A DNA stretch of 64,000 nt from Ectocarpus siliculosus (Eukaryota; Sar; Phaeophyceae; Ectocarpales; Ectocarpaceae), in NCBI GenBank assembly GCA_000310025.1, contig FN648905.1, positions 301,404-365,403 of the forward strand, given 5' to 3'. The first letter of the stretch is position 1; every line of letters begins with the position of its first letter. A program made the position numbers and the translations under genes. The notes beneath the pieces were generated by a model that was given only the letters and a program-made list of their open reading frames with translations, had not been told where the DNA came from and searched no databases. Positions 4,141-20,480 of this stretch are shown here, in pieces.

Positions 4141-4144
4141 GCAG
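4141..4144. repeat. Target-site duplication GCAG, left copy
   Basis: GCAG directly precedes the left LTR (TTTAAAGG) and the same four bases follow the right LTR at 14933-14936. The other LTR junction inside the element has a different sequence, which supports this as target DNA. Four bases is short, so chance agreement cannot be excluded. Confidence 0.55.
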
Positions 4145-4442
4145 TTTAAAGGAGGGGAAGCCGTGGGTGGTAGCTTGCTCCTAGAGATAGATGAAGGTAG
4201 GTTCTGTCGTTGACACGCTTGTCCACGATCACGTAGAGATGAGAAAGTTGCTTGTTGTTGCTGAGAGACGATCAGCAAGGGTCTGAGGTGAAGTGGGGAT
4301 CCAACTTCACCTCAGGGGGGTACGCAGACTAGACAAAATCCTAAGAGGGTAGGTGTCTGAAGGGTATACCTCCTGAGACCGACCCACATCCTATCAACAA
4401 TAAGATGTACCCTATTTAAGCTAGCAGCCACACTCCTTAACA
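4145..4442 (-). repeat. 3' LTR
   Basis: A 298-bp direct repeat of 14635-14932 with no difference found by eye. On the minus strand it begins TGTTAAGG and ends CCTTTAAA, giving imperfect terminal inverted symmetry. The canonical CA end is not seen. An internal hairpin (GGTGAAGT, then ACTTCACC, around 4285-4310) is present in both copies. Confidence 0.9.
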
Positions 4443-5711
4443 CTAGCCCACCCTGAATATCATATATGCAGATTCTATACTCAAATCAATGCTCAACTCC
4501 TAAAAGTTACAACGAAGATTTTAGCTGACGATTGATGCTCATGAATCGAAGATATGACTCTTCACAAAACATCCAAAAAGGAGGGTGAGTTGTAGAAACA
4601 TCCCGAATCAACCCCCACACCATCATTGAGACGAAAGATGGATGCGAACGGCCACGAGACGACACATCGACATCTCAATGACAACGCTCCTATCAATGAA
4701 GGGATAAGGCCAAGAAAAATATGTAGTGCTGCACAGCACGCTATCCGCAACAGACGACGGCAAGAGAAATAAAGTCAAAACCTAAACGCCACACACCACT
4801 CGTTTACGCGCACCCGCGCGTATAACAATGGGAGGAATGAGGGCGACGACCCGAGAGAGCCCCAAAATGCTGTAACAAAACTCAAAACCCAAGCAAAATT
4901 TCCGAACGAATACGGCCTTTGATACTGGACGCGACGTAAAGGGGAAGATATCAACGCAACCAATCTAGGAAAGCGTCAAAGAAGAGCAGGAGAAATGAAT
5001 GACAGGCGAACACACTGACAACAATTTCCAGAGTGTCAGAGAACTCAAACCGTATAGAGAGGCGGCCACGGCAAGACCTGATGAAAACCAAGAATGCAAA
5101 GCATGAATGATCAACGTCTGAGAAGCGATCTGACGAACTTTCCCTGGCGCGCGGGCAAAGCACAACACAGGAAGACTCAGATAACACAGAAAAATCGCAG
5201 AGATACACACAACAACACAACGACTCAAGGGCTCGACGATGATGAAGGCGTCGCCGGCAGGTAGCGATGACGGAGACGAAGTGGAACGAAGTGTGGACGA
5301 CGACGAATGTCCACGGGAGAAGACGACGCCACGGGATGGAAGCCCGAAGTAACAAGCCTAGATGACACTTCGGCGATACGGTGGAGCTAAAAAAAATGAG
5401 TTGGCGAAAGGCGAACCCAGGGAAACACGAGAAACTCGGGGTTTGCCTGGTCAGAGGCGAACATACCGACGAAACTTGGAGAACTCGTTGTTGAAGTGTT
5501 CAGAGGCAAACAACACCGACGAAACTTGGGGAACTCTTTTTCCAAGTGTTCAGAGGCAAATAACACCGACGAAACTTGGGGAACTCTTTTTCCAAGTGTT
5601 CAGAGGCAAACCACTCGAAGAAAACAAGAAGGAAAAGAAAAAAAAAAAAAAAAAAAAACGAACAAACAAACAAAATCCAAGATAGACCAGCTCGAACCTA
5701 AAACGGCGACG
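4443..5711 (-). other. 3' untranslated region of the retrotransposon
   Basis: This lies between the pol stop and the 3' LTR. It has no recognisable domain; open frames here are short and unlike known proteins. It contains a 50-bp tandem repeat and a run of about 19 A on the plus strand (5639-5657), that is, a T run in the element sense. Only a weak purine-rich tract (AGGGTGGG in the element sense) lies upstream of the 3' LTR where a polypurine tract is expected. Confidence 0.6.
5471..5620. repeat. 50-bp tandem repeat, about three copies
   Basis: The segment starting GAAACTTGG recurs at 5471, 5521 and 5571, an exact 50-bp period. The last two copies are nearly identical and the first is diverged. 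It sits just downstream of pol in the element's 3' untranslated region. Confidence 0.85.
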
Positions 5712-8700
5712 CTAGGAAGAGATATTGGGAACAGCCGACGGTAAGGAGTCAGTAATGGGAGGAGTGCGATCCCGGGCGTCGCCCAAAGGGCGCGAGCGAT
5801 GTTTTTCTAAACACCACGATCCACAGACGGCGTCCAAGGCGGTGGAGTAGAGGTGCGCAGGCAGAGGGAGAACGCTGGGGCCCGGGTCATCCAGAAATCG
5901 AACGATGTACGAGCCATCCTGATGAGCACCAATACGTCCTGTCCACCATAATCCGTCGCGGGCCTTGTACCACAGCCGCGCTCCTACTAGAAGGGGCGAA
6001 ATGCTGAAACGACGGAGCCAAGTCGCGTGAAGCACAAGGTCAGCCCCAGGAGGCAAATAGCGTTCGCCACGATTCCGGGCGAGCTCCCGTTGTGCCGCGC
6101 GTGTCCGAGCCACTCGATACGTGCGGTTACCCTGCTTGCTTTGGCAGACCTCTCGAGACCAGTACAAGAGGATGTGTCGACGGAATTGATCGAGGTCGGA
6201 CTCCCGTTCCCAAGAAGGAGTAGTCAGGCCTAGCCAATGCGTCTGGTACAGGACAGCGAGAACGCCGCTACGGCCCCGCACCAATTGGTGTCCCGAAATG
6301 TAGTCGACCTCGAGGCGCCCGACAGGCACCGACACATCATCCGCGGTGACGTGAAACGGTGGACATTTATCGCCGAAAGAGTGCAGGACATAACGCGAAA
6401 GCTCAGCGGGTAGAGATTGGGGCAGGTCGTCCTTCTCGTACGGATTGCGACAGGGCTTGCAACGAAGGACAGATACGCGACATCGAGCTGCTGGGCCGGA
6501 AAGATCAGAAGGCAGGTCCAGGTAGAGGAGTTTACGCGCCAACGGGCTTCCATCTGGGGTGGCGTCGGCCGACGCGGGACCCACCGCAAGAACTTTGTAA
6601 GGCCCCGTCCAGGAAAGCGCGAATTTGGCCTTGAGCACCTGGTGATCCGTGTCGTTCCGCACACCCTGTCGAATTGTAGCAGCCGTGTTGTAGACCCAAG
6701 CCCACCCGCCAACAGTAAATTGCGGGAGCTTATGGATGGCGTCCAGCAGGGATGAATTACGGCGTTCGACTCGCGAGATCTTCAGGGCGTTGTACTCACG
6801 GACCAGGTCGTAGGCCCGGCGCTGACGATCGACAGCCAAGTTGCAATACTCTAGTTGGTCACGGGCTAAGCTTTGATGACCCCCTACCGTTGGATGATCG
6901 AAGACCGAAAGCGGAAGCCGCGGAATGCGTCCGATATGGATCTCGTTCGGCGCCAATCCAGTCGACTGGTTCACGGAATTGTTGTAGGCAAATTCAACGT
7001 GCGGGAGATGTATGTCCCAATCGTTTTGCTGTTCGTTGACGACTACCGCAAGCATCTGAGCCATCGTGTGATTGACGCGTTCCGTGCCGCCGTTGGTTTG
7101 CGGGTGGTAGGAGCTGGTGGTGACTTTCTTGATTTTCATCATCTCGTAGATCGCCATGGAGAGCTTCGAGCAAAAATGCAGTCCGTTGTCCGACAATAAC
7201 GTAGTCGGACATCCCCACTTGGTCATGTACTGGTTGACGAAGATGTGAGCCGTCCCTTTCGCCGTAAATTCCGCCGCTGTAACCGCGAACATGTCGGCTC
7301 TCCGGCTGAAACGGTCTGTGAACAATAGAATGTAGGAGTTGCCCTTGGCAGTCACGGGCAGGGGGCCGAAGAAGTCGACGCCTACGACCGTACCAGGCCC
7401 CTGTGGCAATGGCATAGCGATGACGGGCCACCAAGCGGTTTGACGCGAAGTCTTGCGAGCTTGACACACCAAACACGCGCGAAGCCACCAGCGTACGGAT
7501 CGATCCAGACCAATCCACCAGTAGAAACGCTCAAGCAGACGTTGTGTACGATGAACACCAAGATGGAAGGACGCGGCGGTATGGCAGGCATGAAGGACCC
7601 ACGGACGCATCAACATGGGCACGTAGACACGGGGCACACCAGTATCCGGTAGACGAGTGGTCCTGCCGCCAGAGCGCCCGATCGGCGATGGCGCCGGTTT
7701 ATGTACGAGGAGGGTGACGTTCTCATCGGTCGTGTGCAGCCTGGTTTTCGCCGCCAACGCAAGGACATCGTCCAACCGAGGGGAGCGGAGCGGGGCACTA
7801 AGGGTGAGCAAGTCAGAAGGGGGGGGGAAGGGAGAGCCATGAGACAGAAAGCGCATAGCCACCACGCATTCGCTCTCCCGCTGTTGTTCCCTAGCCCAGT
7901 CCACAGTGCCGAAACTCTGAACGCAAGCTCGCAAATGTGAGGGGTCCAAGTCAGTCGGCTCCAACCCAGAGACAAGCGATCCCACGGAAGAGGCTGGAGA
8001 ACGAGGGGCCTCAACGAGTGGTGAAGTTGCAGACCGCGGTGTCACCTCAGGAGGAGGCATTGGGCGGGGCGAAGTCCCAGGCGAAACCTGGATAGAGGGC
8101 AAAACCGAGGATGCAGCGCGCGCCGATGCCGGCGAAGGCATCTGTGGCGCAGAGGCAGTCGACGAAAACGCCGACGTTGACGTCGCAGATGACGGCAGGG
8201 GACGCGTGCCGGTCCGGATGGTCTTGTTTGTCGAGCGGGACCGGCTAGGACGACGGGCAGTGGACGATGCCCGAGGGACGATGGTAGCCCGCGGCTGGCG
8301 TCCGAAATAGGTGGGACCGGTGACGGTGCCTCCAGAAGCAGCGGTGGTCTTGGCCCGAGTTCGTGAAGAAATGAGCGGTCCCCGCTCCGGAAGCGAAGAC
8401 AGGACGTGCACATATCTATTCGCCAAAGACGCGGCCGGAGACATTCCGCGGGACGTAGCCGGAGCCAAACAGGAAACAGGCACCGGAGACGTGGAAACAT
8501 GTGAGACCACGAAGACTCCCGAAGACCTCCGAGAATCTTGATAATCAATCGGGGAGTCCGATCGAACATCCAGCAGGCGCGGGTGATGACGGCGGAAATC
8601 CCCAAAATCAGATGTCTGTAGCGCTGGGGGTGAAAAGACACCCGCCGAGCAGGGAGGGCGGAGCCCACCCAAACCGACCTCCGGCGTAGACGACGAGTGA

Positions 8701-11700
8701 TAGTTGAGTCCACAAGCCCGAATGAGGAAGACACCAGCGTGATCGACACCATCAATGCAATCGGGGCCGGTTGTGTCCGTGTCTTGTGCTGGTAAAGGCA
8801 GCCGCGAAAGGAAATCCGCGTTGCCGTTTGCCGAACCTTTCCGATATTTCAAGGTGTAGGTGAAGTTGGACAGGAATTCGAGCCATCGTTGTACCCTGGC
8901 GTTGTGTTCTCCAACCTTTCCAATGCTCTCTAAGGCTTTGTGATCTGAATAGATGATGAACTTGGTTGACCACAAATAGCCCCGAAGGCGCTTAATGGCC
9001 CAAACAATGCCACCAGCTTCCAGATCCAGAACAGTCCAGTTCCGCTCCGCCGGAAGAGTAGCGCGGCTGATGTACACAATGGGTCTTACCGAGCCATCGA
9101 GTTGTTCTTGTTCCAGGGAGGCTCCAAAGCCGTCAATGCACGCGTCGGAGCACAAACGGAGAGGACGACTGTTGTCCTCGACCGCAGCCCAATCCGGGAA
9201 GACCAAAATCGGGGGACGCGCGAGTTCGCTCAACAACGTTTTGACAAGCTTGACCATGCCCGGGGTGTACTTGAAGGGGACGCCTTGTTTGAGAAGAGAG
9301 TTGAGAGGCCGCACCTTGGTGGCGAGATTCTGAAGGAATTTCCGGTAGTAGCTGAGGCCACCGAGGAGGCTCCTAAGCTGCTTAACATTCGTCGGCGGCG
9401 GCATGTGCGTGAGCGCCCGAACCTTGACGCCATCAGGGCTAACCCCAGCCGGGGAGATGATGTGACCGAGGAAATTGGCGTGGGTGGCGCCGACACGAGC
9501 CTTCCCTGGAGACAGCTTGAGGTTGTACTGGCGCAGCCGTTTGAAAAACTCGATCATATTGAGCACGTGTCCCAGAGGTTCCTCATCGAAACAGATAACA
9601 TCATCCAGATAGGCAAGCACACGCTCCAGACCGTGCACCACTCTGTTGATGACCTTGACGAACCAAGACGGGCTGGCATTGGCTCCTTGCGGCATCCGAA
9701 GCCATTCGAACAACTGCGTGGGAGTGCAAAAGGCGGTGAGCGGGACAGTGTCTTCGTCACAAACGATCTGGTGGAAGGCCGAATTGAGATCGAAGATGGA
9801 GAACACTTTCCCGGTGTAGAGAGAATCCAAGATACCGTCCACCCGAGGGAGAGGTTGTCCATCCAAGTCCACCAGGGCGTTGAGTCGTTTGTAGTTGACG
9901 GTGATGCGAACCGATCCGTCCTTCTTGGGGATGACGACCAGGGGAGAAGCCCAGGGAGAAGTGGAATGCTGAATGAGCCCTGCCGCCAAATACTGGTCCA
10001 AGACGGCATCCACTTTCTTCTGCATTAACGGGTTAATACGATACGGGCGTGATGCGACGGGCTTCGTGCCTGCGGGGACAGAAAGAGTGAATGGCATGAC
10101 GGTGCAGGAACCAAAATCGGTTTTCGAAGTAGAGAACACGTCGGAATACTCAACAAGGGCGTCGGCCAAACGATCAATAGCCTCCGGTGTCCATCCCGGG
10201 TTGTGTAGATCGAAAGCGATGTCGTGCATATGTGCGGGCAGCCTAGTCCACAATCGCAGAAAACTGGAGCGCTGGGCCTCGGAGAAGCGGTCAAGCAGTT
10301 CTTGTGGAGGCGGCTTCGGAGGAGGCGGGGCGGAGGCTGGGTCCGGAGAGCGGCGAGTCCCGGACTTGGGGCCAACGGCATTGACCCGATGCGGTGATGT
10401 AGAGGACGGGGGGGCGGTGGGAGTCGAAGATGGAGCCGCCTTCAGGGTTTCTACCGGTACTCGTAATAGCGGTGCAGCAGACACGCCAATAACGTCGCCC
10501 GGCTCCAATTCGGCACAACCTGCAAGGGGAATACGCTGAAGACCATTGGAAACAAATGCATCGGGGGACGAAAGTGCACCCACTTCAGGTCGGAACGATA
10601 CGAGATATTCGCCGATCAGCGCAGGCATGCCCGAAGAACGGACGAGGTCCACCTCAACAAGGGCCGGCTCCGGCCCCAAGGAAATGCCCGAGCTCCCTGC
10701 ATATTTGAGGTGAAACGAAGAGGCAGGAGCGTCGTCGTGCGTAGCGTAAACACACGCGCCAGCGGTGAAACGTGGAGAGAGCGTGAGCTCGCCCATAACC
10801 CGGCCGTCCGGTCCAGGGTGGGGGAGGGTGGTGAACACTCGAGAGTTGAACCGCATCCAGCTATCGCGACCCAGAAGCACGGCGTGCCCCATGGCGGCAT
10901 CTGGAACAACGCAGGCCCAGACCGCCAACGAAGCGGTAGCTCGAGCTCCATGAAGAAAATTAACGGTGAGACGAACTGACCGAGTGGTCACAAGGGCGGG
11001 TCCATCACCAAACCCACCCCAACGACGAGAGGGCGAAACACGAACGCTGCCAGCTGTCAAGGCTCCAGCAGCTATCATGGCGGTGACCACGGAGTCAGAC
11101 ACAAAAGACGCAGGAGATCCAGAGTCCAGCAGCGCCATTCGCGCCAGTTGAGAAGTGGCTGTAGGTCCTCCATGCAGCAGAACCCGGGTGGTGTAAGAGT
11201 CCGAGTCCAACAGGAGCGTGCCGCCGACCAGATCGGGCCCGTGTTCCAGAAGAGGAGGTTGGTCTGCACAAGCGGAGGTCGAGGCCACCAGATGAACACC
11301 AGGAGCATGGTCCCCCGGAGCGTCCAAATGGAGACAGGCTGGGTCTTCACCCCGGTCCTCCCGTGACGACGAACCGGCCGCGGTAGCAACCTCGTGGATG
11401 CGTCTACGGCCATGTGGAGAAGGCTGCGAAATGGGAGGTGCGGGAGAAGTGGAGGCGGGGAGAGCTTCGCCAGACAGGGGATGATCACGCAAAAGGCGCC
11501 GAACTTCCATCAAAGCTTTTCCCAACAAGTTTTTACCGCTAGACGCCCACTTGGATGAAACGCTAGCCTCCGGAAAGCATGCAGACATGCCGATACCCCA
11601 AACACGATCGAAGGGGCTAGCTTCCGCAAGGAGGCGGGTACCCGTCTCCAGTAGATGTTGTTTCATGTCGCGGTTTTGAGCGAATTTGGCATACGACCCC

Positions 11701-12845
11701 GTAAGCACGATCTCTTCTCGACGATGCTCCCATTCAGCATAGTCAAAAGGACGGACGTTACGACCCAAGTACTTGTGTGTCTTAGGATCTGGTGCAGCCA
11801 TGATTTTGTCATACGACGTCATATCCCCAAACAACTTCGCTTTTTCAGACATCATAAATTGCTCACCACATGAATAACGTACCCCCAGTACGTCAAAAGC
11901 CGAGGGAGTCCATTGCGAGAACACAGACGGAGGTTTCCAGAAGAGGAGGACGTCATCCGAAGCGTACTCGCATTTGTCATCAAACGGCGGAGCCGGTGCA
12001 GGGCGCAGCGGCAAAGAGCGGGCACCAGGCACGGGCGGGGGTGGGTCAAGCGGACGGGTCCTCATCTCCGACGGGGAGGACCCAGAAAGCGAGGGAGGAG
12101 CGGGCGAAGTCGCTCCGGTCCATGATCCGGAGGGCGGCCTACGGGCGGCGGCTCCGGCGAGGTCAATGTTAGCAGAGGCCATTCGGCTATTAGAGACCTG
12201 TTCGTTAAGAGAAGTCTTTCCTGCGGCAGACGGATATGTGTGAATGGACGCAGGGCGCTCTGGACTACTCCCCCGTGACAAAGGAGCCGAACCTTCCACA
12301 GAACGGTGGGCACTACCATCCGATCCCGATGGCAGTGGTGCAGTCAGCACGTTGTGGGCAGCAGAGGAAGACGCATTCGTATCAGGTGCTGCCACACGGG
12401 GGCAGCGGACGGTCGAAGACAACGAAAGCTGCGAAAGAGAAGGAGAATCGACGGGGTCCCTGACGAGTGTAGAAGAAGGCTCGTGTGCTATCATCCGAGA
12501 AGAGGCCCGGCTGACAATACCAGGAGAGTCTTGGCGAACAGTAGTAGACGAGGTTCTTGTTCCTTCTGTAACCCGAGACGGCGAGGTGAGCAGGGGTGAA
12601 CCACTCGACGTCTTACCTCCCTGTCGCCCACACCACAAAGGTTGTGCCGGAGTGGGTTTGTCATGTCCAATACCAGCAGACGATGAGGTGGGTGACGAGG
12701 AGGCGGGCCGAGAAACTAGACGTGATTTGGGGGCGTGGGGAGTATCCAAAGAAGTAGGCTGTACACGAACATCCTGAGAGACTCCAAAAGGGTGCACGGT
12801 GGTTGCTAGTGACGGTAGTACCGGCTGAACTCCGCCATCGGCATG
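5712..12845 (-). CDS. pol: Pol polyprotein: NADAR, protease, RT, RNase H, integrase, chromodomain, Tudor-like
   Basis: One uninterrupted frame follows the gag TGA. Positions here are counted from GTG 12797 (2361 residues). Residues 1-275 are Ser/Pro-rich linker. Residues 276-440 are a NADAR domain. The protease has LLDSG (D558) and VLLGRDSW near 646. RT spans about 905-1150 with AYLDD at 1062-1066. RNase H has D1218, E1260, D1285 and D1328. A second Ser/Pro/Arg-rich linker covers 1350-1620. Integrase has an HHCC finger (H1739, H1745, C1775, C1778) and a DD35E core (D1808, D1870, E1906). A chromodomain lies at about 2161-2213 and a Tudor/Agenet-like module at about 2270-2325. There is no ATG near the start; translation probably continues from gag by readthrough of TGA 12848-12846, since the frames are the same. 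No enzymatic motif is broken. Confidence 0.93.
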   Translation of the reverse strand, partial: HADGGVQPVLPSLATTVHPFGVSQDVRVQPTSLDTPHAPKSRLVSRPASSSPTSSSAGIGHDKPTPAQPLWCGRQGGKTSSGSPLLTSPSRVTEGTRTSSTTVRQDSPGIVSRASSRMIAHEPSSTLVRDPVDSPSLSQLSLSSTVRCPRVAAPDTNASSSAAHNVLTAPLPSGSDGSAHRSVEGSAPLSRGSSPERPASIHTYPSAAGKTSLNEQVSNSRMASANIDLAGAAARRPPSGSWTGATSPAPPSLSGSSPSEMRTRPLDPPPPVPGARSLPLRPAPAPPFDDKCEYASDDVLLFWKPPSVFSQWTPSAFDVLGVRYSCGEQFMMSEKAKLFGDMTSYDKIMAAPDPKTHKYLGRNVRPFDYAEWEHRREEIVLTGSYAKFAQNRDMKQHLLETGTRLLAEASPFDRVWGIGMSACFPEASVSSKWASSGKNLLGKALMEVRRLLRDHPLSGEALPASTSPAPPISQPSPHGRRRIHEVATAAGSSSREDRGEDPACLHLDAPGDHAPGVHLVASTSACADQPPLLEHGPDLVGGTLLLDSDSYTTRVLLHGGPTATSQLARMALLDSGSPASFVSDSVVTAMIAAGALTAGSVRVSPSRRWGGFGDGPALVTTRSVRLTVNFLHGARATASLAVWACVVPDAAMGHAVLLGRDSWMRFNSRVFTTLPHPGPDGRVMGELTLSPRFTAGACVYATHDDAPASSFHLKYAGSSGISLGPEPALVEVDLVRSSGMPALIGEYLVSFRPEVGALSSPDAFVSNGLQRIPLAGCAELEPGDVIGVSAAPLLRVPVETLKAAPSSTPTAPPSSTSPHRVNAVGPKSGTRRSPDPASAPPPPKPPPQELLDRFSEAQRSSFLRLWTRLPAHMHDIAFDLHNPGWTPEAIDRLADALVEYSDVFSTSKTDFGSCTVMPFTLSVPAGTKPVASRPYRINPLMQKKVDAVLDQYLAAGLIQHSTSPWASPLVVIPKKDGSVRITVNYKRLNALVDLDGQPLPRVDGILDSLYTGKVFSIFDLNSAFHQIVCDEDTVPLTAFCTPTQLFEWLRMPQGANASPSWFVKVINRVVHGLERVLAYLDDVICFDEEPLGHVLNMIEFFKRLRQYNLKLSPGKARVGATHANFLGHIISPAGVSPDGVKVRALTHMPPPTNVKQLRSLLGGLSYYRKFLQNLATKVRPLNSLLKQGVPFKYTPGMVKLVKTLLSELARPPILVFPDWAAVEDNSRPLRLCSDACIDGFGASLEQEQLDGSVRPIVYISRATLPAERNWTVLDLEAGGIVWAIKRLRGYLWSTKFIIYSDHKALESIGKVGEHNARVQRWLEFLSNFTYTLKYRKGSANGNADFLSRLPLPAQDTDTTGPDCIDGVDHAGVFLIRACGLNYHSSSTPEVGLGGLRPPCSAGVFSPPALQTSDFGDFRRHHPRLLDVRSDSPIDYQDSRRSSGVFVVSHVSTSPVPVSCLAPATSRGMSPAASLANRYVHVLSSLPERGPLISSRTRAKTTAASGGTVTGPTYFGRQPRATIVPRASSTARRPSRSRSTNKTIRTGTRPLPSSATSTSAFSSTASAPQMPSPASARAASSVLPSIQVSPGTSPRPMPPPEVTPRSATSPLVEAPRSPASSVGSLVSGLEPTDLDPSHLRACVQSFGTVDWAREQQRESECVVAMRFLSHGSPFPPPSDLLTLSAPLRSPRLDDVLALAAKTRLHTTDENVTLLVHKPAPSPIGRSGGRTTRLPDTGVPRVYVPMLMRPWVLHACHTAASFHLGVHRTQRLLERFYWWIGLDRSVRWWLRACLVCQARKTSRQTAWWPVIAMPLPQGPGTVVGVDFFGPLPVTAKGNSYILLFTDRFSRRADMFAVTAAEFTAKGTAHIFVNQYMTKWGCPTTLLSDNGLHFCSKLSMAIYEMMKIKKVTTSSYHPQTNGGTERVNHTMAQMLAVVVNEQQNDWDIHLPHVEFAYNNSVNQSTGLAPNEIHIGRIPRLPLSVFDHPTVGGHQSLARDQLEYCNLAVDRQRRAYDLVREYNALKISRVERRNSSLLDAIHKLPQFTVGGWAWVYNTAATIRQGVRNDTDHQVLKAKFALSWTGPYKVLAVGPASADATPDGSPLARKLLYLDLPSDLSGPAARCRVSVLRCKPCRNPYEKDDLPQSLPAELSRYVLHSFGDKCPPFHVTADDVSVPVGRLEVDYISGHQLVRGRSGVLAVLYQTHWLGLTTPSWERESDLDQFRRHILLYWSREVCQSKQGNRTYRVARTRAAQRELARNRGERYLPPGADLVLHATWLRRFSISPLLVGARLWYKARDGLWWTGRIGAHQDGSYIVRFLDDPGPSVLPLPAHLYSTALDAVCGSWCLEKHRSRPLGDARDRTPPITDSLPSAVPNISS
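11478..11972 (-). other. NADAR (YbiA-like) domain encoded inside the retrotransposon pol
   Basis: Residues 276-440 of pol show the NADAR pattern in order: FWKPPSVFSQWTPSAF, a Gly-Glu-Gln-Phe block with the conserved Glu (E312), a YLGR block, a KFAQN block, LLETGTRLLAEASP, WGIG (400-403) and the closing GKNLLGKALMEVRRLL. These correspond to the E-H-x-F-Q, LGR, KF-Q, TG-x-x-L-x-E, WG-x-G and G-N-x-LG-x-x-LM blocks of bacterial YbiA/NADAR proteins. The domain is full length (about 150 residues). Known members handle ADP-ribose-type substrates, including ADP-ribosyl-guanine in nucleic acids and riboflavin-pathway intermediates. Its role here is unknown. It is flanked by Ser/Pro-rich linkers and precedes the protease. 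Confidence 0.88.
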
Positions 12846-14591
12846 TCATTTCTTACCCTTCCAGCCCCTCTTAGCCGAAGTGGAAGTCTCCGATGAGGAT
12901 TCTGTGTGCGAGGACTGTTTCATGTCCGATGTGTCAGATGAACGGCGGGCGCGTCCCGAGGAGTGAGCACGGGGTGGGTTGCGTCCGGTAGGTCGTCTAT
13001 ACGAGGTCATGCGCTTTTTCCACCGACTCCAAAGTGTGGGATCTTTTTCCATGCAGAGCTTGATATCATTGTTAAGCAGGCCTGTGGCGTTAATGAACCC
13101 ACGAGTACAAGATTTGAAGGAGTGGTCTTCCCCTAAGCAGTTGAGGCACTTGCCCTTGTACAGCCGAAGCGCGTTGCGGCGGTCTTCAGCCGAGACCAAG
13201 GGGGTGAACAATGGCGGATCATTCTTGGTTAGAGCCATCTCACTAGCGACGTTGTATACCTCTGGAAAGTGTCCTTGCAGCGGCCAGTCGCTGTAGTGCA
13301 ACAGAAAAGGGTCTCGATCATCATAAGGTAGAGGGTCAACACTCATCACCGCAGCCGAAGAACCTGGACTCCACGAAGGGGTCACCGACGACCGCAACGC
13401 CGAAGAAGCTACAGCACGCGAAACAGCAGACGAACTCCGAGCATTCGTGGAAGACACCGAAAAAAAATCGTCACCATGTACCGCCGGCGTGTGCGCGAAT
13501 GCCCGCTTGTCCAACACATCCCACATATCGTCCAAACACGAAGCATGTCGCCCAAAAGGGGCTTCCATGGAGAGCTGCTCATCCTTGTACACCTGTCCAG
13601 ACACTACGGGAAACTGCTTCAACATGGAGTCTCGAACAGCTATCTGCACTTGTGCATCCGAAGGCTTGAACGCGTGATGAGAAACCATGACAGTCATGGC
13701 CAGAGCCTTATAGCGACGAATGTATTCTCCGTACGTCTCGCCGGTGGACACGCCAAAACTACGAAGGCGATCGATCCCCGAGCTCTTGTCTTGAGTGTCC
13801 CAGGCGGCCGCCAATTTCTGGATAAAGAACGCGTACGTCGAGGGCCCGGCCGGTTCCTTGCGCAGATGGTTTTCTACCTGTTGGAAAGTGGCATCAAGAA
13901 ATTCCAGCGTGGCACGGTTGGTGGTTTGACCTTCAACGACAGCAGCACGAACACGTTTGCGCAACAACGGAAGCCATCCTGCGACCCAGGTGGAGGAAGC
14001 GAAAGTCTGCTTGCGTTTGACGTCGCTTTTGTTGAGGATCTCGGTGACCACGCCCTTGCAGCTAGACGCGAAACGAGCAAATTCATCAGGATCAGAACCA
14101 AGGGGCAAGCGTGTGACACTATCAAGTTGGTCCGGCTTCAGCTTGTCCATCTTGTCTTGAATGCGGATGGTGTCGGCCTCCGCTGCAGCGGCGTCCGCAG
14201 CGTCCAAAGCCTCCTGCCTCGTCCTCGCCCCCGTGGAAGACAAAGGCAAGCTAGCATCATCCTGAGGCAACGGCGATGTCGCGTTGGCCGGTGACGCCAT
14301 GACGTGGCCGGTCGCCGGGCGAGGATCGATCAGGATAGACGTACGCGGGAGGGGGGGGGGCACCACCAAAGGCTGTTGTAGCAGAGCTGGGGCGGTCGAC
14401 GCTGATGACACCACCAAAGGCTGTTGCGGCAGAGCTGGAGCGGTCGACGCTGATGACACCACCAAAGGCTGTTGCGGCAGAGCTGGGGCGGTCGACGCTG
14501 ATGACACCACCAAAGGCTGTTGCGGCAGAGCTGGGGCGGCCGGCGCTGATGACGATGACACTGCCAGGACCACAATGGATTCGAAACCCAT
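12846..14591 (-). CDS. gag: Gag polyprotein with CCHC zinc knuckle
   Basis: The frame encodes 581 residues from ATG 14591. It is open up to 14768, but that extension reads through the LTR and primer site, so 14591 is preferred. The N-terminus has four 16-residue repeats containing QQPLVVSSASTAPALP. A charged Gag core follows (DKMDKLKPDQLDSVTRL onwards, then a capsid-like helical region). One zinc knuckle, CLNCLGEDHSFKSC (CX2CX4HX4C), lies at about residues 482-495. The C-terminus is basic and Ser-rich and ends KGWKGKK before TGA. It should package element RNA in cytoplasmic particles. The stop is followed by an open frame into pol with no frame change. Confidence 0.88.
   Translation of the reverse strand: MGFESIVVLAVSSSSAPAAPALPQQPLVVSSASTAPALPQQPLVVSSASTAPALPQQPLVVSSASTAPALLQQPLVVPPPLPRTSILIDPRPATGHVMASPANATSPLPQDDASLPLSSTGARTRQEALDAADAAAAEADTIRIQDKMDKLKPDQLDSVTRLPLGSDPDEFARFASSCKGVVTEILNKSDVKRKQTFASSTWVAGWLPLLRKRVRAAVVEGQTTNRATLEFLDATFQQVENHLRKEPAGPSTYAFFIQKLAAAWDTQDKSSGIDRLRSFGVSTGETYGEYIRRYKALAMTVMVSHHAFKPSDAQVQIAVRDSMLKQFPVVSGQVYKDEQLSMEAPFGRHASCLDDMWDVLDKRAFAHTPAVHGDDFFSVSSTNARSSSAVSRAVASSALRSSVTPSWSPGSSAAVMSVDPLPYDDRDPFLLHYSDWPLQGHFPEVYNVASEMALTKNDPPLFTPLVSAEDRRNALRLYKGKCLNCLGEDHSFKSCTRGFINATGLLNNDIKLCMEKDPTLWSRWKKRMTSYRRPTGRNPPRAHSSGRARRSSDTSDMKQSSHTESSSETSTSAKRGWKGKK
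14357..14557 (-). repeat. 48-bp in-frame tandem repeat in gag
   Basis: Four copies of a 48-bp unit (for example from GCTGATGACACC) encode a 16-residue Pro/Ala/Ser-rich repeat. Copies two and three are nearly identical and the outer copies differ at a few sites. Because the unit is a multiple of three, copy number can change without breaking gag. Confidence 0.85.
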
Positions 14592-14604
14592 TGTGATTTC
14601 ACGC

Positions 14605-14632
14605 GCAGGTTCATATCCTGCCGCTGACGCCA
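14605..14632 (-). promoter_or_regulatory. Primer binding site matching a whole tRNA T-arm plus acceptor end
   Basis: Read on the plus strand, this is the 3' end of a tRNA: T-stem GCAGG, 7-base loop TTCATAT, T-stem CCTGC, acceptor CGCTGAC, discriminator G, then CCA (14630-14632). The element-sense strand, starting TGGCGTCAGCGG two bases after the LTR, is therefore a primer site with complementarity far beyond the usual 18 bases. The loop has T rather than the near-universal A at position 58. The tRNA identity is not determined; its acceptor 5' strand should read GTCAGCG. Confidence 0.75.
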
Positions 14633-14634
14633 AG

Positions 14635-14932
14635 TTTAAAGGAGGGGAAGCCGTGGGTGGTAGCTTGCTCCTAGAGATAGATGAAGGTAGGTTCTGTCGT
14701 TGACACGCTTGTCCACGATCACGTAGAGATGAGAAAGTTGCTTGTTGTTGCTGAGAGACGATCAGCAAGGGTCTGAGGTGAAGTGGGGATCCAACTTCAC
14801 CTCAGGGGGGTACGCAGACTAGACAAAATCCTAAGAGGGTAGGTGTCTGAAGGGTATACCTCCTGAGACCGACCCACATCCTATCAACAATAAGATGTAC
14901 CCTATTTAAGCTAGCAGCCACACTCCTTAACA
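14635..14932 (-). repeat. 5' LTR
   Basis: The partner of the 4145-4442 repeat, also 298 bp. It is followed by the primer site on the inner side and GCAG target DNA on the outer side. An AT-rich TTAAATAGGG box near its 5' end is the likely core promoter. Confidence 0.9.
14901..14911 (-). promoter_or_regulatory. TATA-like box in the 5' LTR
   Basis: CTTAAATAGGG on the minus strand lies about 20-30 bases inside the LTR and is duplicated at 4411-4421 in the 3' LTR. Position and composition fit a core promoter for the element RNA; this is inference from sequence only. Confidence 0.4.
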
Positions 14933-16307: not shown

Positions 16308-16950
16308 ATGGCTCTCCTGGACGGGATTCACAACATCTGCCTTCGGTCACAATATCTGCTCATGATGGTGGCACGCGAAGGCTACAGGAAACTACAGCTA
16401 AACGCTCACGGTGAGTACGTGGTGCTGACGGAGGTACTTCTTCCCCTGGAAAACAAGAGCACCAGGTCCACAGACAAAACCGTTGACGGCACCTGTATCA
16501 CCCACTTCAAGGGACCCGATACGGAAAAGGTTTGCGGTGATGCTTGTCATCCTTCACCCGCTGATGCGGAAGCTACTCCCGCAAGGAAAGCAGCTGTGCG
16601 CCGAGGTTGGCCCCTTCACCGCAAGCGGCGAGGTGTTCACCGACACCCAGTTGCAGCATCTCTTCGAGCACATCGGGTGGAACTTGATCGGGATCCCGAA
16701 GTGGGGGTACAATATCAACCGCTCCCTCATCATCACGGACGCTTGTATTGTGGCTTTTCAACAAGGCAAATACGCCAAATGTCCCATGATGGATGCTGTA
16801 CGCTACGGGGCTCGCATGAGCGAGGATCAGATGCTGGGAAACTACAACCAAGCAAGCTACGGAGTGTTGAATGCGACCCCGTCTTCTGATGCATACAAGT
16901 GTGGATCGTTGGCCAGAGTTAGTCGGCTTAGGATGGAACACGCGAACACG
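16308..16950 (+). pseudogene. Degenerate downstream exon(s), possibly tyrosine-recombinase-like
   Basis: Coding-like sequence starts near MALLDGIHNICLRSQYLL and continues to about 16530, where the frame shifts by one base (after PDTEK). It then continues with RFAVMLVILHPLMRKL to GNYNQASYGV near 16865. The acceptors available near 16290 and 16302 do not match the phase of the preceding exon, so the locus appears broken. The last part has Arg (INRSLIITDA), Arg (VRYGARMSED) and a following Tyr (LGNYNQ), in an order reminiscent of the C-terminal half of tyrosine recombinases. That resemblance is weak. The 3' end runs into the satellite array. Confidence 0.35.
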
Positions 16951-19900
16951 CGAAGAGGTCTTTGTCATTTCATACTGCATCCGTGTTGTGCTCGTGGCCA
17001 TGCTATGAGGTAACAAACAACTAGTATGAATCCAATAAATATTCAGTGGTGGTAACACAACATATGGTCTGCAAACGTATTCCTGAAGGTGAAACTCAGC
17101 CTCAGGGTCACCTCTTTGAGAATCCTAAATAGAGAAACCGACCACCGACGACCTGACCGCGGAGGACCCAGTGGCCGAACGCGTGAAGACACAATCGAAG
17201 ACGCGAACAAGCGAACACGTAGGACGCGAACACGCGAACACGCGAACAAGCGAAAAAACCAACACGCGAACACACGAACACGTGAAGACACAAGCGAACA
17301 CGCGAATACGCGAACACGTAAGACGCGAACAAGCCAACAAGCGAACAAGCCAACACGTGAACATACGAACACGTGAAGACACAAGCGAACACGCGAACAA
17401 GCCAACCCGCAAACACGCAAGCACGTGAAGACACAAGCGAAGACGCGGACAAGCGAACAAGTCTACACGCGAACACGAGAACCCGCGAACACGCTAACAC
17501 ACAAACACGCGAACACGTAAGACGCGAACACGCGAACAAGCGAACAAGCCAATACGCGAAGACACAAGCAAAGAGGCGAACAAGGGAACACGCGAACATG
17601 TAAGACGCGAACACGCGAAGAGGTCTTTGTCTGTCATTTCATACCGGATCCGTGTTGTGCTCGTGGACATGTCTTGAGATATCAAACAACTATGGTTTGA
17701 ATCCAAGAAATATATGGTGGTGGTAACACAGGATATGGTCTAAAAACGTATTCCTGAAGCTGAAACTCACCCTCAGGGTCACATATCTGACAATCCAAAA
17801 ACAAAGAGAAACCGAGCACCGACGACCTGACATCCGTAGACCCGGTGGCCGAACACATGAACACGAGAACACGTGAACACGAAAACACGCGAACACGCGA
17901 AGAGGTCTTTGTCATTTTCTACCGGATCCGTGTTGTGCTCGTGGCCATGTTACGAGGTATCAAACAACTGTGGTTTGAATGCAATAAATATTCAGTGGTG
18001 GTCACACAACAAATGGTCTGGAAACGTAATCCTGAAGCTGAAACTCAGCCTCAGAGTCAATCTTCGGGGATCCTAAATAGAGAAACCGAGCACCGACGAC
18101 CTGACCGCCGAGGACCCGGTGGCCGAACACGTGAAGACACAAGAGAAGACGCGAACACGTAAGACGCGAAGACGCGAACAAGCGAACAAGCCAACACGCG
18201 AATACACGAACAAGTGAAGACACAAGCGAACCCGCGAACACGCTAACAACACGCGAACACGTAAACCGCGAACAAGCGAACAAGCCAACACGCGAACACG
18301 TAAGACGCGGAGACGCGAACAAGCGAACAAGCCAATACACGAACACTCGAACACGTCAAGACACAAGCGAACACGCGAATTAGCGAACACGCGAACAAAC
18401 GAACACGCGAACACGGGAACACGAGGAGAACACGCGAACGCGAAAGACGCAAACACGCGAACAAGCGAACAAGCCAATACGCGAACCACTACCACGTGAA
18501 GACACAAGCGAACACGCGATCAACCGAACACGCGAACACGAGAACACGCGAACACGCAAGACGCGGAGACGCGAACAAGCGACCAAGCCAATACGCGAAC
18601 CACTACCACGTGAAAACACAAGCGAAGACGCGAACAAGCGAAGACGCGATCAAGCGAACCCGCGAACGCGCGAACACGTAAGACGCAAGCGCGCGAAGAG
18701 GTCTTTGTCATTTCATACCGGCTCCGTGTTGTGCTCGTGGCCATGCTATGAGGCAACAAACAACTTGGTTTGAATCCAATAAATATTTATGGTCTGCAAA
18801 CGAAATCCTGAAGCTGAAACTCAGCCTCAGGGCCACATCTTTGAGAATCCTAAAAAGAGAAACCGACCACCGACGATCTGACCGCCATGGACCCGGTGGC
18901 CGAACGCATGAAGACACAATCGAAGACGCGAACAAGCAAACACGTAACACGCGAACACGCGAAAAACCCAACACGCGAACACACGAACACGTGAAGACAC
19001 AAGCGAACACGCTAACACGCTAACACGCTAACACGCGAATACGCGAACACGTTAGACGCGAACAAGCGAACAAGCGAACAAGCCAACACGTGAACATACG
19101 GCCACGTGAAGACACAAACGAACACGCGAACAAGCGAATAAGCCAACTGTGCTCGTGGCCATGCTATGAGGTAACAAACAACTATGGTTTAAATCCAATC
19201 AATACTCAGTGGTGGTAACACAAGAAATGGTCTAAAAACGTATTCCTGAAGGTGAAACTCACCCTCAGGGTCACATCTCTGACATTCCAAAAAAGAGAAA
19301 CCGAGCACCGACGACCTGACCGCCGTGGACCCGGTGGCCGAACACATGAACACGAGAGCAAACACGCGAACACGCGAACAAGCGAACACGCGAACACGCG
19401 AAGAGGTCTTTGTCATTTCATACCGGCTCCGTGTTGGGGCCGTGGCCATGCCACGAGGTAACAAACAACTGTGGTTTGAATCCAAGAAATATTCAGTGGT
19501 GGTCACACAACAAATGGTCTGGAAACGTAATCCTGAAGCTGAAACTCAGCCTCAGGGTCAATCTTCGGGGATCCTAAATAGAGAAACTGACCACCGACGA
19601 CCTGACCGCCGAGGACCCGGTGGCCGAACACGTGAAGACACAAGCGCAGACGCGAACACGCGAACACGTAAGACGCGAAGATGCGAACAAGCGAACAAGC
19701 CAACACGCGAACACACGAACAAGCGAACAAGCCAACACGGGAACGCACGAACACGTGAAGACACAAGCGACCCCGCGAACCCGCAAACACGCGAACACGC
19801 GAACAAGCGAACAAGCCAACACGCGAACACACGAACAAGTGAAGACACAAGCGAACCCGCGAACACGCTAACACGCAAACACGCGAACACGAAAACACGC

Positions 19901-20480
19901 GAACACGCGAACAAGCGAACACGCGAACACGCGAACACACGAACACGTGAAGACAAAAGCGACCCCGCGAACACGCTAACACGCTTACACGCAATCACGT
20001 AAGACGCGAACACACGAACAAGCGAACAAGCCAATACGCGAACACACGAACACGTGAAGACACAAGCGAAGACGCGAACAATGAAGACGCGAACAAGCGA
20101 ACACGCGAACACGAAAACACGCGAACACGCATACACGCGAAGACGTCTTTGTCATTCCATACCGGATTCGGGTTGTGCTCGTGGCCATGCTATGAGGTAA
20201 CAAACAACTATGGTTTTAATCCAATAAATATTCAGTGGTGGTCACACAAGATATGGTCTAAAACCGTATTCCTGAAGATGAAACTCAGCCTCAGGGTCAG
20301 TCTTCGGGAATCCTAAAGAGAGAATCCGAGCACCGACGACCTGACCACCGAGGACCCGATGGCCGAACACGTGAAGACACAAGCGAACCCGCGAACCCGC
20401 GAACACACGAACACGCGAACAAGCGAACAAGCCAATACGCGAACCCGTGAACACTTGAAGACACGAGCGAACCCGCGACC
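16950..20480. repeat. Higher-order satellite: ~240-bp unit alternating with octamer arrays
   Basis: Seven copies of a conserved unit begin near 16953, 17617, 17899, 18697, 19147 (truncated), 19401 and 20130. Each contains GAGGTCTTTGTCATTTC, CTCGTGGCCATGC, TGGTTTGAATCCAATAAATA, a hairpin-forming CCTGAAG...CTCAGG segment and ACCCGGTGGCCGAACA. Between units lie arrays of an 8-bp minisatellite (consensus CGAACACG, variants CGAACAAG and CGAAGACG) from about 40 to 550 bp long. Open frames occur on both strands because the octamer lacks stop codons; they are not genes. Confidence 0.93.

What the first reader, a model, noticed from the sequence alone, without database searches (positions are those of the whole stretch)
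11478..11972. NADAR (YbiA-like) domain built into a Ty3/gypsy polyprotein
A full-length NADAR domain sits between gag and protease in an otherwise intact, recent retrotransposon. Seen: all conserved NADAR blocks in order, including the Glu motif, WGIG and GKNLLGKALM. Known: NADAR enzymes act on ADP-ribose-type substrates and some remove ADP-ribose from guanine in nucleic acids. Inference: the element may use it to reverse host ADP-ribosylation of its RNA or cDNA, or to affect nucleotide/NAD metabolism during reverse transcription. That would be a retroelement-encoded counter-defence module.
Basis: partly seen in the sequence, partly recalled or inferred. Interest (0 to 1): 0.92.

Follow-up and report, generated by a model that had tools for sequence, protein, structure and literature searches.

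The report
NADAR enzyme domain in algal retrotransposons
A family of brown-algal jumping genes carries, inside its own replication protein, a well-preserved enzyme domain of the kind that strips ADP-ribose tags off DNA and RNA; the fusion was reported in 2025, and here it is found to be old, conserved and under selection, though its job is still unproven.

Summary
On the minus strand lies an LTR retrotransposon (4143-14932; LTRs 300 bp, identical). Its Pol has a full NADAR domain (Pfam PF08719, E 6.6e-45, window 11487-11942) ahead of protease, RT, RNase H and integrase. The genome, probably an Ectocarpus-like brown alga, holds at least 150 NADAR matches. All 80 further copies fetched sit beside protease and/or RT, in six families. 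Eleven of 13 ADP-ribose-site residues of the Phytophthora enzyme are identical in the window and nearly constant over 81 copies. Variants shared between copies show purifying selection (ratio about 0.10, like the protease). RT and NADAR trees agree in 12 of 14 splits, which fits one old acquisition inherited with Pol.

It is not new: Genome Biology 2025 (PMC12477816) reports this lineage in Ectocarpus. Added here: tests of selection, active site and co-inheritance, and a cellular, intron-containing NADAR gene in the same genome, so bacteria are not the only candidate source. Best reading: an active de-ADP-ribosylase used during replication, most likely on guanine adducts of the element's RNA or cDNA. 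Counter-defence is plausible but untested. 'Recent' fits this insertion, not the fusion.

The parts
14633..14932 (-). 5' LTR, 300 bp
   Evidence: blastn of window ends: identical to 4143-4442 over 300 bp
14602..14632 (-). putative primer binding site, begins TGG directly after the 5' LTR and looks like the complement of a tRNA 3' half
   Evidence: read from sequence; the tRNA was not sought
12846..14591 (-). gag, from the first in-frame ATG after the LTR to a UGA stop (581 aa); CCHC knuckle-like motif at 13107-13148; 48-nt tandem repeats near the start
   Evidence: no Pfam match of note
12846..12848 (-). UGA stop between gag and pol, which are in the same frame (possible readthrough site)
   Evidence: the same layout (TGA followed by CA) at 4 of 10 other places examined, all family 2
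5712..12845 (-). pol open reading frame, 2377 aa from stop to stop
11487..11942 (-). NADAR domain, YbiA type
   Evidence: Pfam PF08719 E 6.6e-45; PDB 8bau E 2.1e-17; model pLDDT 96.5
10698..11282 (-). protease region; DSG motif at 11118-11126
   Evidence: motif read from sequence; no Pfam protease match
9456..9932 (-). reverse transcriptase
   Evidence: PF00078 E 4.3e-25
8862..9176 (-). RNase H
   Evidence: PF17917 E 1.3e-27
7101..7622 (-). integrase (zinc-binding and core)
   Evidence: PF17921 E 9.9e-14; PF00665 E 1.8e-6, below its curated cut-off
6156..6311 (-). chromodomain-like stretch, weak
   Evidence: PF00385 E 0.13, below cut-off
4143..4442 (-). 3' LTR
   Evidence: flanking 5-mers GCTGC and GCGGC, an imperfect target-site duplication

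Best explanation
The segment is a real, enzyme-competent NADAR domain of the YbiA type that entered the Pol of a Ty3/gypsy lineage of brown algae before its families split and has been kept by selection during replication. It is made as part of Gag-Pol (gag and pol share one frame with a UGA between them, so probably by readthrough), is probably freed by the protease and carried in the particle, and there most likely hydrolyses ADP-ribose from guanine bases of the element's RNA or cDNA, keeping the template readable. Shown here: the domain, its residues, co-inheritance with RT, and a selection signal. Inferred: readthrough, packaging, activity, substrate and purpose. My separate estimates: functional and selected domain about 0.9; enzymatic activity about 0.8; nucleic-acid guanine adducts as the substrate that selection acts on about 0.5.
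For: Pfam E 6.6e-45; 8bau E 2.1e-17; model pLDDT 96.5. Of 13 residues named at the ADP-ribose site of the Phytophthora enzyme, 11 are identical in the window; over 81 copies E43 81, K50 80, K75 81, W89 81, E125 79, D130 81, W133 80; Y84 is F in 81; D86 is variable (pairing from the alignment with an inferred numbering offset of two). Of 80 fetched copies 79 have the protease region and 78 an RT match beside the NADAR, none lacks both. Variants shared by two or more copies of a family: 38 synonymous, 13 nonsynonymous, ratio 0.10, against 0.45 for singletons (78 and 120), Fisher p 7.9e-6; protease shared 0.10, RT 0.054. RT and NADAR trees of 17 elements share 12 of 14 splits. Published NADARs remove ADP-ribose from guanine in DNA (PMC11543638) and RNA (PMC11833690).
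Against: No activity, expression or packaging data. No host enzyme that ADP-ribosylates guanine was found, though a six-frame search is poor at split genes and the PARP profile rang in none of the 14 controls. 28 of 150 RT matches had no listed NADAR within 4.5 kb upstream; four of these have a weaker NADAR match, but one with an 1802-aa open frame (C26:254072) may do without it. Pooled pN/pS in family 2 is high for NADAR (0.649; RT 0.442). Between representatives of families 0 and 5 NADAR dN is 0.165 against RT 0.037. E. coli YbiA has another described role (riboflavin intermediates), and PMC11543638 says that targets of NADARs outside DarT operons remain unknown.
Confidence: 0.5

Rival explanations
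1. The domain acts on small molecules (ADP-ribose derivatives used as alarm signals, NAD breakdown products or reactive riboflavin intermediates), protecting reverse transcription or blunting a diffusible host signal rather than cleaning nucleic acid.
For: PMC9503650 argues that phage NADARs mainly target low-molecular-weight ADP-ribose derivatives (passages); YbiA is described as acting on riboflavin intermediates.
Against: The same paper argues that NADARs in polyproteins of eukaryotic RNA viruses target macromolecular adducts; placement inside Pol puts the domain beside RNA and cDNA.
Confidence: 0.22
2. The domain is an ADP-ribose reader: it binds ADP-ribosylated protein, RNA or chromatin to place the particle or the integration complex, with catalysis secondary.
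For: A chromodomain-like stretch lies at the Pol C-terminus (weak), and PMC12477816 reports chromatin readers in these elements; ligand-contact residues are conserved.
Against: The E43 and E125 equivalents are as conserved as the other contacts (81 and 79 of 81); the domain is far from the integrase C-terminus.
Confidence: 0.12
3. General RNA processing of the transposition intermediate, as the Ectocarpus authors suggest, for example at RNA ends rather than at bases.
For: Suggested in PMC12477816.
Against: NADARs tested in PMC11833690 did not act on phosphate-end ADP-ribosylation (passages).
Confidence: 0.1
4. A captured passenger without function, carried along by recent amplification.
For: Copies within a family are alike (mean NADAR DNA identity 97-99%); family 2 shows high pooled pN/pS (0.649).
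Against: Ratio 0.10 at shared variants, p 7.9e-6 against singletons; retention in six families and 12 of 14 splits shared with RT; active-site conservation.
Confidence: 0.03

Closest known systems
NADAR-bearing Gypsy lineage of Ectocarpus sp. 7 (e.g. Gypsy-12_Ec32), PMC12477816, Genome Biol. 2025
   Same: Ty3/gypsy, YbiA-type NADAR at the N-terminal part of Pol, putative chromodomain at the integrase end, brown alga.
   Different: I could not compare sequences (supplements not open). In the parts that I saw (section 5 part 1 and passages) there is no selection, active-site or co-inheritance test, and a bacterial source is suggested; here a cellular brown-algal NADAR gene is a further candidate.
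NADAR of Phytophthora nicotianae (PDB 8BAU), YbiA subfamily
   Same: Sequence match and 11 of 13 named ADP-ribose-site residues; Glu125 equivalent present.
   Different: Described there as a protein domain, not as part of a retrotransposon; D86 position differs; activity shown there, not here.
NADAR domains in polyproteins of nidoviruses, hepe-like viruses and picornaviruses (PMC9503650)
   Same: NADAR embedded in the replication polyprotein of an RNA-based element.
   Different: RNA viruses of animals with RNA-dependent RNA polymerase; no LTRs or integration. Sequence closeness not tested.
NADAR-like ORF1 of Tx1 LINEs of Crassostrea gigas (PMC12477816)
   Same: Retrotransposon-encoded NADAR.
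   Different: Non-LTR element, ORF1, described there as divergent; not examined here.
DarT1-NADAR toxin-antitoxin (BC4488 subfamily)
   Same: Guanine de-ADP-ribosylation as the biochemical model.
   Different: Has Asp, not Glu, at the second catalytic site; no DarT match in this genome.

Membership tests
NADAR superfamily (PF08719) | Full-length profile match above cut-off | tested here: met
   153.7 bits against 35.1, profile 2-163 of 163
NADAR superfamily (PF08719) | Glu and Lys equivalent to E43/K50 of the Phytophthora enzyme (E88/K95 of E. coli C7) | tested here: met
   81 and 80 of 81 copies
NADAR superfamily (PF08719) | NADAR fold | tested here: inconclusive
YbiA subfamily | Glu at the E125 position (Asp in BC4488, His in phage NADARs) | tested here: met
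   E in 79 of 81 copies, one K, one stop
NADAR superfamily (PF08719) | Guanine de-ADP-ribosylation activity | not testable with these tools
   needs an assay
DarT1-associated BC4488 NADAR antitoxin | Asp at the second catalytic position and an associated darT | tested here: not met
   Glu; no DarT match in the genome, control rang in 1 of 14
Ty3/gypsy LTR retrotransposon | Two LTRs in direct orientation | tested here: met
   300 bp, identical
Ty3/gypsy LTR retrotransposon | Order PR-RT-RNase H-integrase | tested here: met
   protease by DSG motif only
Ty3/gypsy LTR retrotransposon | Target-site duplication | tested here: inconclusive
   GCTGC / GCGGC, 4 of 5
Ectocarpus NADAR-Gypsy lineage (PMC12477816) | NADAR at the N-terminal part of Pol | tested here: met
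Ectocarpus NADAR-Gypsy lineage (PMC12477816) | C-terminal chromodomain | tested here: inconclusive
   PF00385 E 0.13, below cut-off
Ectocarpus NADAR-Gypsy lineage (PMC12477816) | Sequence identity to the curated Gypsy families | not testable with these tools
   supplement look-ups not available; a Pol of Ectocarpus sp. CCAP 1310/34 is 95% identical over 42% of the queried part

The most novel reading that the evidence does not exclude
A retroelement-encoded de-ADP-ribosylase: brown algae mark retroelement RNA or cDNA with ADP-ribose on guanine as a defence, and this Gypsy lineage carries an eraser for it, possibly captured as a spliced copy of the host's own zinc-finger-like/NADAR gene, which would be the host's antidote. 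That would be a counter-defence inside an LTR retrotransposon and would imply an unknown nucleic-acid ADP-ribosylation system in brown algae.
Probability: 0.2. Interest if true: 0.85.

Novelty: already known. Interest (0 to 1): 0.48.

Why it matters
The fusion is in print, its meaning is not. The data here indicate that the domain is kept by selection and with its active site, so it should do something for the element. If the substrate is ADP-ribosylated RNA or cDNA, it points to nucleic-acid ADP-ribosylation in a eukaryotic lineage where I met no such system in what I read, and gives a natural tool to look for it. The cellular relative in the same genome makes the origin and the host side testable.

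Tried and rejected
Passenger hypothesis: disfavoured by the shared-variant ratio and tree agreement. Single odd copy: rejected. Host gene as a domesticated retrotransposon piece: not favoured, since the brown-algal cellular NADARs form their own clade outside the retro rows (100/97; also in the quick tree). Origin of the retro NADAR: unresolved. In the careful tree the brown-algal retro rows form a clade (99/83), but three further public Pols (P0129, P0130, P0132) stand apart in an open fork, so a second acquisition is not excluded; holding all retro-like rows together (p-AU 0.273) or retro plus host together (p-AU 0.295) was not rejected. Chromo or Tudor identity of the Pol C-terminus: Pfam weak, PDB sequence search nothing of use. 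Literature: of the rows listed (20 of 104, 20 of 5,265, 1 of 1, 2 of 2 and 7 of 7) only PMC12477816 concerned NADAR in retrotransposons; ADP-ribosyl with Ty3 gave 10 papers, none of use by title. The library holds open-licence PMC papers only. PMC7926851 was opened and is irrelevant (an author name).

Full report
WHAT IS THERE. The finding lies in an LTR retrotransposon on the minus strand. Two identical LTRs of 300 bp bound it at 4143-4442 and 14633-14932, so the insertion is young. The flanking 5-mers are GCTGC and GCGGC, an imperfect duplication. A gag frame (581 aa from the first ATG after the LTR, with a CCHC-like motif at 13107-13148) ends in UGA at 12846-12848, and a pol frame in the same reading frame runs on to a stop at 5712-5714. 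Pfam finds in Pol, in order, NADAR (286-437, E 6.6e-45), RVT_1, RT RNase H, integrase zinc-binding and integrase core, the last below its curated cut-off. A DSG protease motif lies between NADAR and RT. The NADAR is at window 11487-11942, inside the stated coordinates.

HOW MANY, AND IN WHAT. The window's genome is 189.5 Mb in 492 contigs. It is probably an Ectocarpus-like brown alga: exon 1 of its cellular NADAR gene is 86.7% identical over 90 aa to a protein of Ectocarpus sp. 13, a Pol of Ectocarpus sp. CCAP 1310/34 is 95% identical over 42% of the queried part, and the EsV-1-7 repeat gives 150 scored matches out of 880 candidates (that this expansion marks brown algae is recalled). The NADAR profile gives 150 scored matches out of 230 candidates, a lower bound; 24 of the 150 lie in open frames of 2000 aa or more without a stop inside the match, two of them far longer than an element. 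Of these 80, 79 have a protease-region match and 78 an RT match (65 with at least 200 of 250 codons aligned) beside the NADAR; none lacks both. In the two capped listings, 122 of 150 NADAR matches have an RT match within 4.5 kb downstream, and 122 of 150 RT matches have a NADAR upstream. With the window, the 81 copies form six families of 21, 18, 18, 16, 6 and 2 by single linkage at NADAR DNA identity above 85%.

IS IT AN ENZYME BY SEQUENCE? The best solved relative is 8bau (E 2.1e-17), then YbiA 2b3w (E 0.00017); 8BAU is the Phytophthora nicotianae NADAR with ADP-ribose. From the residues that the paper names and the alignment (chain numbering offset of two inferred from E43, K50 and K75), 11 of 13 are identical in the window. 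Over 81 copies: E43 81, K50 80, K75 81, G78 80, R79 81, V81 81, W89 81, R93 79, E125 79, D130 81, W133 80; Y84 is F in all; D86 is variable. Glu at the E125 place marks the YbiA subfamily. 74 of 81 copies have no stop in the aligned domain. AlphaFold2 on 70 aligned sequences gives mean pLDDT 96.5; a fold search could not be run.

IS IT SELECTED? Within families 0-4, pooled pN/pS for NADAR is 0.144, 0.191, 0.649, 0.274 and 0.344; for RT 0.103, 0.264, 0.442, 0.483 and 0.456; for the protease 0.233, 0.239, 0.599, 0.290 and 0.853. Much of this should be decay after insertion. Variants present in two or more copies of a family, which should mostly have passed through replication, give a nonsynonymous/synonymous ratio per site of 0.10 for NADAR (38 synonymous, 13 nonsynonymous), against 0.45 for singletons (78 and 120), p 7.9e-6; for the protease 0.10 against 0.47, for RT 0.054 against 0.54. 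At shared variants NADAR does not differ from RT (p 0.17) or protease (p 0.83). Codons with more than one change, stops, columns with fewer than four copies, and family 5 (two copies) were left out; shared variants are few and not all independent. Against an even picture: between representatives of the two closest families (0 and 5) NADAR dN is 0.165, protease 0.069 and RT 0.037, so NADAR has moved faster there; that may be adaptation, relaxed constraint or exchange, and I cannot tell which.

AGE OF THE FUSION. Of the 21 closest Pol-length proteins (P0121-P0141), 13 carry a NADAR by Pfam; the best alignments of the other eight cover only 32-77% of the queried part. Trees of RT and NADAR for 17 elements (one copy of each family and 11 of those 13 Pols; P0131 and P0133 left out as near-copies) share 12 of 14 inner splits, though the NADAR tree has only four strongly supported ones. 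NADAR has thus most likely been inherited together with RT since before these elements split.

WHERE IT CAME FROM. The Ectocarpus paper notes that searches outside Ectocarpus retrieve almost only bacteria and suggests horizontal transfer. In this genome there is also a cellular NADAR gene: contig C24 near 2126758-2127066, with a Cys/His-rich N-terminus, then NADAR, split by an intron with GT...AG borders after ...VVDN. Relatives are listed from Ectocarpus sp. 13, E. fasciculatus, Scytosiphon promiscuus, Pylaiella littoralis and Hapterophycus canaliculatus; a shorter NADAR protein is listed from Chrysoparadoxa australica. The Cys/His-rich part was compared for P0003, P0004, P0008 and P0166 only. 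In the careful tree the cellular brown-algal proteins form one clade (100/97) outside the retro rows; the brown-algal retro rows form a clade (99/83), three other public Pols stand in an open fork, and deeper order is open. Neither one origin for all retro-like NADARs nor a retro-plus-host clade is rejected (p-AU 0.273 and 0.295). Capture of a spliced host mRNA and a bacterial source both remain possible.

HOW IT MAY WORK. NADARs remove ADP-ribose from guanine in DNA (PMC11543638, section 12 and passages) and in RNA, but not from phosphate ends (PMC11833690, passages). NADARs occur in polyproteins of some positive-strand RNA viruses, where the authors argue for macromolecular targets (PMC9503650, passages). 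By analogy, a NADAR in Pol would meet the element's RNA and cDNA in the particle. This is the most likely reading, not a shown one. The host side is blank: no DarT match and four exon-sized PARP matches, two with a stop inside, so a PARP-type enzyme may exist, but none with a nucleic-acid target is known to me. Expression: in the window and at 4 of 10 other places examined (all family 2) gag and pol frames are parted by a single UGA followed by CA; at the other six the nearest upstream stop lies elsewhere, and these copies may be damaged.

NOVELTY. PMC12477816 (section 5 part 1 and passages seen) reports one Gypsy lineage of Ectocarpus in which all families have a YbiA-family NADAR at the N-terminal part of Pol (its example, Gypsy-12_Ec32, also with a C-terminal chromodomain), and similar domains in Tx1 LINEs of the oyster; it suggests RNA processing. 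My searches for other reports showed none in the rows listed. The finding is therefore known in kind. What I did not see there, in the parts read: the selection test, the residue-level test, RT/NADAR co-inheritance, the cellular gene, and the same-frame UGA between gag and pol.

Noticed in passing
L092 (G000:C24:2126300-2127100): Intron-containing cellular gene: a Cys/His-rich (zinc-finger-like) N-terminus followed by NADAR, with relatives in several brown algae.
   Followed up: partly
window 12846-12848 and family-2 loci L003, L004, L007, L090: Gag and Pol share one frame and are parted by a single UGA followed by CA, suggesting stop-codon readthrough for Pol; seen at 4 of 10 other places examined.
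   Followed up: partly
window 14602-14632: The putative primer binding site looks like the complement of a tRNA 3' end well into the T-arm (about 30 nt), longer than the usual 18 nt (recalled); the tRNA was not identified.
   Followed up: no
window 14361-14552 and 5465-5625: 48-nt tandem repeats in the N-terminal part of gag (repeated ALPQQPLVV peptide) and 50-nt tandem repeats between pol and the 3' LTR.
   Followed up: no
G000:C26:254072-254812: A related RT (56% identity, open frame 1802 aa) with no listed NADAR upstream: possibly a member that lost or never had the domain.
   Followed up: no
families 0 and 5 (window and L075/L077): NADAR has diverged much more than RT between these two close families, most strongly around residues 121-140.
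   Followed up: partly
window 16936-20399: Long arrays of 8-nt-period repeats (GAACACGC-like) interspersed with longer units, one of about 300 nt in four copies.
   Followed up: no
P0157: An 1830-aa metagenomic protein with an N-terminal NADAR and no reverse transcriptase domain listed.
   Followed up: no
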